Shown here piece by piece: positions 39,727 to 39,862 of a stretch of 64,000 nucleotides of DNA; within the stretch, counting starts at the first letter, position 1; every line of letters begins with the position of its first letter. The stretch covers positions 186,001 to 250,000 of the forward strand of contig NZ_NEVN01000009.1 in the NCBI RefSeq assembly GCF_002261475.1, given 5' to 3'. A program made the position numbers and the translations under genes. This DNA comes from Bordetella genomosp. 5. Its GTDB lineage: Bacteria; Pseudomonadota; Gammaproteobacteria; Burkholderiales; Burkholderiaceae_B. The notes under the pieces are model-generated. The model did no database searches and was not told the DNA's origin. It saw only the letters and a program-made list of their open reading frames with translations.

Positions 39727-39759
39727 AAAAAAAAGTGCCCCGGGCGCGAAGCCCGGGGC
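39727..39759 (-). terminator. Rho-independent terminator on the minus strand
   Basis: A perfect 9-bp stem (GCCCCGGGC / GCCCGGGGC) with loop TTCGC is followed on the minus strand by AC and eight T residues. It is one of the two terminators in the window with a real T-run, and it points away from any annotated minus-strand gene. Confidence 0.85.
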
Positions 39760-39814
39760 CAACTCGAGGTTCCTATTGCGAATTGCCGCGACCGGTTCGG
39801 GGAAAAGCCGCGGC
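39727..39814 (-). ncRNA. Predicted 88-nt FNR-dependent small RNA
   Basis: No protein gene ends here on the minus strand, yet a classic intrinsic terminator does. The predicted transcript starts near 39814, set by the -10 TACTAT and an FNR box centred 41.5 bases upstream. Its 5' hairpin (GCCGCG / CGCGGC, bases 1-30) shows a pyrimidine loop with UUUUCCCC, suited to pairing with ribosome binding sites. An unpaired middle (31-55) follows, then the terminator. The layout recalls E. coli FnrS, without evident sequence identity. Prediction only. Confidence 0.6.
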
Positions 39815-39848
39815 AGAACCATAGTAGTTACGCGCCCCGGCCCCGGCC

Positions 39849-39862
39849 TTGATCGAGGTCAA
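39849..39862 (-). promoter_or_regulatory. FNR/CRP-family binding site
   Basis: The plus strand reads TTGATCGAGGTCAA, one base off the FNR consensus TTGAT-N4-ATCAA. Its centre (39855.5) is 41.5 bases from the predicted minus-strand start at 39814, the class II activator position, with -10 TACTAT at 39826-39821. For the plus-strand racemase gene the spacing to its candidate -10 (TATAGT, 39890-39895) is about 46.5, which is less usual. Confidence 0.65.

What the first reader, a model, noticed from the sequence alone, without database searches (positions are those of the whole stretch)
39727..39862. Hidden FNR-controlled small RNA on the minus strand
A strong T8 terminator has no gene to terminate. 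Upstream of it is an 88-base predicted RNA, a -10 TACTAT, and an FNR box whose centre is exactly 41.5 bases from the predicted start. The RNA has a 5' hairpin with a UUUUCCCC-containing loop and a terminal hairpin. This is the architecture of FnrS-type regulators that repress aerobic metabolism genes when oxygen is low.
Basis: partly seen in the sequence, partly recalled or inferred. Interest (0 to 1): 0.8.

Follow-up and report, generated by a model that had tools for sequence, protein, structure and literature searches.

The report
Oxygen-controlled small RNA gene in Bordetella
The stretch is very probably a real small regulatory RNA gene, shared by some Bordetella species and built to be switched on by the oxygen sensor FNR when oxygen is low; what it regulates is still unknown.

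Summary
On the minus strand an FNR-type box (39849-39862), a -10 TACTAT (39826-39821), a predicted start at 39814 (box centre at -41.5) and a terminator ending in T8 (39727) define an 88-nt RNA. The same unit occurs in 8 of 15 genomes of the genus (Bordetella, by record L021). In all 8 the box lies exactly 22 nt before the -10, while the 60-nt flanks are 31-34% identical. Both hairpins show compensatory changes (7 of 18 pairs). The genome encodes Fnr. I found nothing else credible in 268 family genomes (stricter filters). No Rfam family reaches threshold here; FnrS is not among matches up to E = 10, although the same library finds FnrS in E. coli. So its promoter works like that of FnrS or AniS, but kinship is not shown. 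Targets are open: fnr mRNA itself was the best of 82 orthologue pairs, but not significantly after correction. Expression is unproven. A new sRNA family of a known kind.

The parts
39849..39862 (-). FNR-type box TTGACCTCGATCAA, centre 41.5 nt before the predicted start
   Evidence: present in all 8 carriers at the same spacing; 92% mean pairwise identity against 34% in the 60 nt upstream
39827..39848 (-). 22-nt spacer between box and -10; length fixed, sequence variable (52% identity)
39821..39826 (-). -10 element TACTAT (TAC[T/C/G]AT in the 8 carriers)
39727..39814 (-). predicted 88-nt small RNA
39785..39814 (-). 5' hairpin; loop core CCCGAACC invariant in 8 of 8; 7 of 7 stem pairs kept, 2 of them with changes on both sides
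39761..39785 (-). invariant linker CAATTCGCAATAGGAACCTCGAGTT, proposed pairing and/or Hfq-binding segment; may fold as a weak middle hairpin showing the loop CAAUAGGAACCU
   Evidence: 100% identity in 8 genomes; RNAalifold
39737..39759 (-). terminator stem-loop; changes on both sides in 5 of the 11 alignment pairs counted (9 pairs in the window)
39727..39734 (-). T8 tail of the terminator
38928..39635 (+). convergent neighbour, weakly DcrB-like lipoprotein (NCBIfam 38.9 bits against a cut-off of 221; no Pfam match); found in the same 8 genomes as the sRNA
39938..40630 (+). divergent neighbour, Asp/Glu racemase family protein; beside the sRNA in 2 of 8 carriers

Best explanation
39727-39814 (minus strand) is a stand-alone gene for a small RNA of about 88 nt. 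When oxygen is low, Fnr with its iron-sulphur cluster binds the box at -41.5 and activates RNA polymerase as a class II activator. Transcription ends at the intrinsic terminator. The RNA then acts in trans by base-pairing, probably with Hfq: the invariant linker (which contains ACCUC, complementary to GAGGU ribosome-binding sites, and AAU-AGG-AAC, which fits the ARN repeats that Hfq is known, by recall, to bind) and the CCCGAACC loop pair with ribosome-binding regions of mRNAs and lower their translation. Shown by comparison: the gene unit, the promoter architecture, both hairpins, the invariant linker, and the presence of Fnr. Inferred: expression, FNR dependence, Hfq use, base-pairing, and the direction and identity of targets.
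For: Box, 22-nt spacing and -10 in 8 of 8 carriers, terminator and T-run in 8 of 8. Conserved block in diverged flanks. Both stems: 98.6% of cells paired, 7 of 18 pairs with changes on both sides, 0 of 500 shuffles as high on four of five measures. Covariance model hits E 4e-25 to 2e-21 in 8 of 15 genus genomes. Fnr with an N-terminal CSSCMLGHVC motif, over the NF008365 cut-off (234.7 against 228 bits). The only other promoter of this exact type in the genome precedes a partial E1-E2 ATPase gene (Pfam PF00122 over cut-off) beside what I read by eye as cbb3 oxidase genes. Other such sites in the genus read by eye as universal stress protein, cytochrome b561 and transporter genes, and 0 of 21 examined (of 40) have a run of 5 or more T within 250 nt.
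Against: No transcript data. Hfq was not searched for. One of five covariation measures (further pair types) is not above shuffles (116 of 500 as high), and related sequences can beat such shuffles without structure. In the fetched 9% of the genome, linker and loop pair with 317 start regions more weakly than most of 60 shuffles do, so a general anti-ribosome-binding role is not shown. In 3 of 8 carriers a same-strand gene follows the terminator (Na+/H+ exchanger-like in L004), so a leader role there is not excluded. The carriers are 8 species of one genus.
Confidence: 0.8

Rival explanations
1. It is a 5' leader or attenuator of a downstream gene and the hairpins control read-through; it is not a trans-acting RNA.
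For: In 3 of 8 carriers (L003, L004, L005) a same-strand reading frame follows the terminator; in L004 it is a Na+/H+ exchanger-like gene (PF00999) whose first ATG, at 1646, lies about 11 nt after the T-run, which ends at 1634.
Against: In the other 5, window included, the DcrB-like gene lies 27-100 nt beyond the RNA and points towards it, so there is nothing to lead into, yet the linker is identical.
Confidence: 0.06
2. The FNR box serves the divergent racemase gene (39938, plus strand), and the minus-strand terminator is incidental.
For: The box lies 75 nt upstream of the racemase ATG and a plus-strand TATAGT lies at 39890-39895.
Against: The gap from box to TATAGT is 27 nt, not the 22 nt of class II. 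A racemase gene is found beside the sRNA in 2 of 8 carrier loci, but the box keeps its distance to the sRNA -10 in all 8.
Confidence: 0.05
3. It is a member of the Rfam family anti-hemB (RF02837), the best sub-threshold match.
For: 27.7 bits, E 7e-5, same two-hairpin layout.
Against: Below the gathering score of 49.5. 28 of 30 printed anti-hemB loci (the 2 others were misplaced by my script) share CCTCCCTGAGCGGG, which is absent here. No FNR-like box was found in 30 (those 2 included), and 20 of 28 readable ones have a sigma-E-like promoter instead. In this genome three other places score higher with that model, 28.4-30.6 bits, all below cut-off.
Confidence: 0.03
4. The unit is a chance arrangement with no gene.
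For: Terminator-like and FNR-like sites are individually common.
Against: Ordered conservation of all elements with compensatory stem changes in 8 genomes.
Confidence: 0.02

Closest known systems
FnrS (Escherichia coli / Salmonella; Rfam RF01796, written frnS)
   Same: FNR-activated stand-alone sRNA; a review says it belongs to the FNR regulon and that more than 30 mRNAs for functions dispensable without oxygen are repressed on its overproduction (PMC8139620, passages read).
   Different: No detectable relation: not among Rfam matches up to E = 10, and model R1 of this RNA has no match up to E = 10 in the E. coli fnrS locus. Targets here unknown.
AniS (Neisseria meningitidis)
   Same: An sRNA described as Hfq-dependent, under FNR control and made in oxygen limitation (PMC4423775: passage and cited title seen).
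   Different: Sequence not compared here (no copy fetched); different genus.
PhrS (Pseudomonas aeruginosa)
   Same: ANR (FNR-type) activated sRNA (recalled, no call).
   Different: Longer, and also encodes a peptide (recalled); not compared here.
Bordetella sRNAs S17/CT_433 and CT_521
   Same: Small RNAs of Bordetella with ribosome-binding-site-complementary seeds (PMC12235514, passages read).
   Different: Their conserved seeds are C/T-rich and they occur in B. pertussis. The terms fnr and anaerob do not occur in the main texts searched.
anti-hemB (Rfam RF02837)
   Same: Two hairpins with a C-rich loop and a terminator.
   Different: Different sequence and a sigma-E-like promoter.

Membership tests
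FNR-activated stand-alone sRNAs (kind) | FNR box at -41.5 with -10, start and terminator, conserved | tested here: met
   (the start itself is predicted)
FNR-activated stand-alone sRNAs (kind) | an FNR protein in the genome | tested here: met
FNR-activated stand-alone sRNAs (kind) | RNA induced without oxygen, dependent on fnr | not testable with these tools
   needs RNA from cells
FNR-activated stand-alone sRNAs (kind) | Hfq binding | not testable with these tools
   ARN-like AAUAGGAAC in the linker and the U8 tail are only suggestive
FnrS (Rfam RF01796) | match to the family's covariance model | tested here: not met
   not among 23 matches up to E = 10; positive control: the same library finds it in E. 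coli at 134.8 bits
FnrS (Rfam RF01796) | represses aerobic-metabolism mRNAs by base-pairing | tested here: inconclusive
   target scan covered only 9% of the genome
anti-hemB (RF02837) | score over the gathering threshold | tested here: not met
   27.7 against 49.5 bits
anti-hemB (RF02837) | same promoter type | tested here: not met
   no FNR-like box in 30 anti-hemB loci scanned, 2 of them misplaced; 20 of 28 readable have a sigma-E-like promoter

The most novel reading that the evidence does not exclude
The RNA closes a negative feedback loop on the oxygen sensor itself: FNR switches on the sRNA, whose invariant linker (ACCUCGAG) pairs with the ribosome-binding site of fnr mRNA (CUCGAGGU, 4 nt before the ATG in the window's genome) and limits FNR synthesis.
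Probability: 0.12. Interest if true: 0.65.

Novelty: new member of a known kind. Interest (0 to 1): 0.45.

Why it matters
Oxygen-responsive sRNAs are described in a limited set of bacteria (for example FnrS, AniS, PhrS). The identical 25-nt linker makes its targets directly searchable.

Tried and rejected
Homologues outside the genus: the DNA search of 200 family genomes gave 7 non-genus genomes with weak matches (E 0.001-0.007). I printed 6 of those 10 places (L008-L013); by eye they are chance matches in other sequence; L014-L017 were not printed. Weak covariance hits: I inspected 12 of the 22 non-carrier places plus the 3. None had an FNR-like box in the 100 nt upstream, but 2 of these 15 (L110, L116) lie on cut loci and were not read correctly; 10 places were not inspected.

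anti-hemB kinship: rejected.

Coding RNA: I see no ATG inside the 88 nt; a TTG in the linker runs through the terminator without a stop inside the RNA, and in L006 that codon is TTA.

Targets: the linker complement YTYGRGGTTYYTRTT in 15 genomes gave 13 places, 8 of them the sRNA gene itself. CTCGAGGTTN2-9ATG gave 62 places; I read 28 of them and saw no convincing start region special to carriers; CTCGAGGTTGCATG occurs in all 15 genomes, with or without the sRNA. Linker and loop duplexes with 317 start regions from 464 kb (about 9%) of the genome were weaker than most of 60 shuffles. In that scan fnr was second best for the linker. In 82 orthologue pairs with G036, fnr ranked 1 and 10 with accessibility, 1 and 5 without; 0 of 150 shuffled linkers ranked fnr so well, but 59 of 150 ranked some gene as well. 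The G036 site keeps only CGAGGUC, which a ribosome-binding site may keep anyway. So fnr is a lead, not a result. I chose contig C4 for sampling because it held fnr and the ATPase/oxidase genes, so fnr was in the sample by design. My gene calls were home-made (GC3 bias), and start codons are uncertain.

Synteny route to fnr worked in G176 and failed in G132, G148 and G092; in G036 it turned up in later stretches.

Full report
What is there. On the minus strand an FNR-type box TTGACCTCGATCAA (39862-39849) is followed after 22 nt by TACTAT (39826-39821) and six bases later by the predicted start G at 39814, exactly 41.5 nt from the box centre. The RNA would run 88 nt to the end of a T8 at 39727. 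A pattern scan finds the terminator (stem 39759-39737, 9 G-C pairs). Folded one base off (39815-39728), the RNA forms two strong hairpins, -42.6 kcal/mol, z -2.5, with 2 of 200 shuffles as stable. Single elements are not rare: 0.6 terminator-like sites are expected in that kilobase, and the window holds 17 FNR-like sites with up to 2 mismatches, 6.6 expected. The full promoter pattern is rare: TTGAYN4RTCAA-N21-23-TANNNT occurs twice in the whole 5.2-Mb genome and the reversed pattern not at all.

Whose genome. The nearest named relative found is Bordetella genomosp. 1: record NZ_NEVL01000004.1 (L021) has the contig length and coordinates of G176:C5. From contig lengths I recall, without a call, that G092 (4,043,846 bases) is B. 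pertussis 18323 and G200 (3,699,674) B. holmesii.

Conservation. A DNA search finds the region in 8 of 15 genus genomes, own included. A covariance model from these 8 scores 98-112 bits, E 4e-25 to 2e-21, in the same 8 of 15. The tally is 12 of 15 at E <= 1, but the other four genomes have only weak hits (best E 0.01-0.45). In 268 family genomes, with stricter filters that can lose weak matches, only these 8 plus 3 weak hits appear; the 3 have no FNR-like box and read as other terminators. The box, the 22-nt spacing and the -10 are present in 8 of 8. Mean pairwise identity by segment: upstream 60 nt 34%, box 92%, spacer 52%, -10 89%, hairpin 1 84%, linker 100%, terminator 74%, downstream 60 nt 31%.

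Structure. On the named two-hairpin structure 98.6% of cells pair and 7 of 18 pairs have changes on both sides. 0 of 500 shuffles reach the observed value on four measures, but 116 of 500 do on the fifth (further pair types), and relatedness can inflate such counts. One terminator pair is G-C, C-G or A-U in different species. The 25-nt linker CAATTCGCAATAGGAACCTCGAGTT never varies. RNAalifold offers a weak middle hairpin in it, which cannot be tested because nothing varies.

Independence from neighbours. The convergent DcrB-like gene (38928-39635) is found in the same 8 genomes and not in the other 7. In 5 of the 8 it lies 27-100 nt from the RNA, tail to tail; in G176, G132 and G148 it is about 2.2 kb away, with a same-strand gene between, a Na+/H+ exchanger-like one in G132 (PF00999, 139.8 bits). 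The racemase is beside the sRNA in 2 of 8 carrier loci, the window and G176 (loci of about 3 kb). So neither neighbour explains the fixed box-to-RNA distance.

Regulator. The genome has an Fnr: CSSCMLGHVC at the N-terminus and EEIGNYLGLTLETVSRLLSRF in the DNA-binding region, over the curated cut-off of NF008365 (234.7 against 228 bits). A second Fnr-like protein lacks that cysteine cluster. The other promoter of this exact type in the genome stands before a partial P-type ATPase gene (PF00122 37.8 bits, over its cut-off; NCBIfam copper ATPase model 72.5 bits, under its 397 cut-off), next to what I read by eye as cbb3 oxidase genes. In the 15 genomes there are 48 such sites, 8 of them the sRNA. 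Of the 40 others I looked at 21: several read by eye as universal stress protein, cytochrome b561, transporter or the same ATPase genes, and 0 of 21 have a run of 5 T within 250 nt.

Known or not. The only Rfam match in the window over threshold is a tRNA. At E up to 10 the RNA region gives 23 sub-threshold matches, best anti-hemB at 27.7 bits; FnrS is not among them. As a control the same library finds FnrS (RF01796, 134.8 bits) in E. coli K-12, and model R1 finds the window RNA at 99.5 bits but nothing in that E. coli stretch up to E = 10. anti-hemB is over its cut-off in 103 of 150 genomes of the order. No FNR-like box was found at 30 anti-hemB loci, 2 of them misplaced, and 20 of 28 readable loci carry GAAC[TC]-N14-20-TCTNA, 0.07 expected in shuffles. 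So the resemblance is in layout only. The rows shown by nine searches of the paper library name no FNR-controlled Bordetella sRNA; lists were capped. The term fnr does not occur in the main texts of PMC12235514, PMC11722255 and PMC3110155 (passages read, not whole papers). Supplementary tables were not readable, so an unnamed entry there is possible.

Mechanism. I commit to FNR-activated, trans-acting antisense control through the linker and loop; Hfq use and repression are inference by analogy with FnrS and AniS. Target evidence is thin. Linker and loop bind 317 start regions more weakly than most of 60 shuffles. fnr itself is the top pair of 82 orthologue pairs: rank 1 in the window's genome and 10 in G036. 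0 of 150 shuffled linkers rank fnr so well, but 59 of 150 give some gene as good a result. In G036 the match shrinks to CGAGGUC. I keep it as the boldest reading (0.12), not as a result.

Verdict. Observation confirmed, interpretation partly supported: a new FNR-controlled sRNA family of limited range, like FnrS in control, not shown to be related to it or to share its targets.

Noticed in passing
loci L193-L222 (other Burkholderiales-order genomes): The Rfam family anti-hemB (RF02837) is over cut-off in 103 of 150 genomes of the order, and 20 of 28 readable loci have a sigma-E-like promoter just upstream (GAAC[TC]-N14-20-TCTNA, 0.07 expected in shuffles). It may be a widespread envelope-stress sRNA.
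   Followed up: partly
L263:9140-9260 (G000:C4, fnr start region): The fnr ribosome-binding site CCTCGAGGTCACTATG is complementary to part of the invariant linker; the coding start in G176 (GGTTCCTATT) matches a second part of the linker's complement.
   Followed up: partly
window 38928-39635 and relatives L134-L141: The DcrB-like lipoprotein gene has the same distribution as the sRNA, 8 of 15 genus genomes, so the pair may have arrived or been lost together.
   Followed up: no
L003, L004, L005 downstream of the sRNA: A gene (Na+/H+ exchanger-like in L004) lies between sRNA and DcrB-like gene in 3 of 8 carriers, so a gene gain or loss happened beside the terminator.
   Followed up: partly
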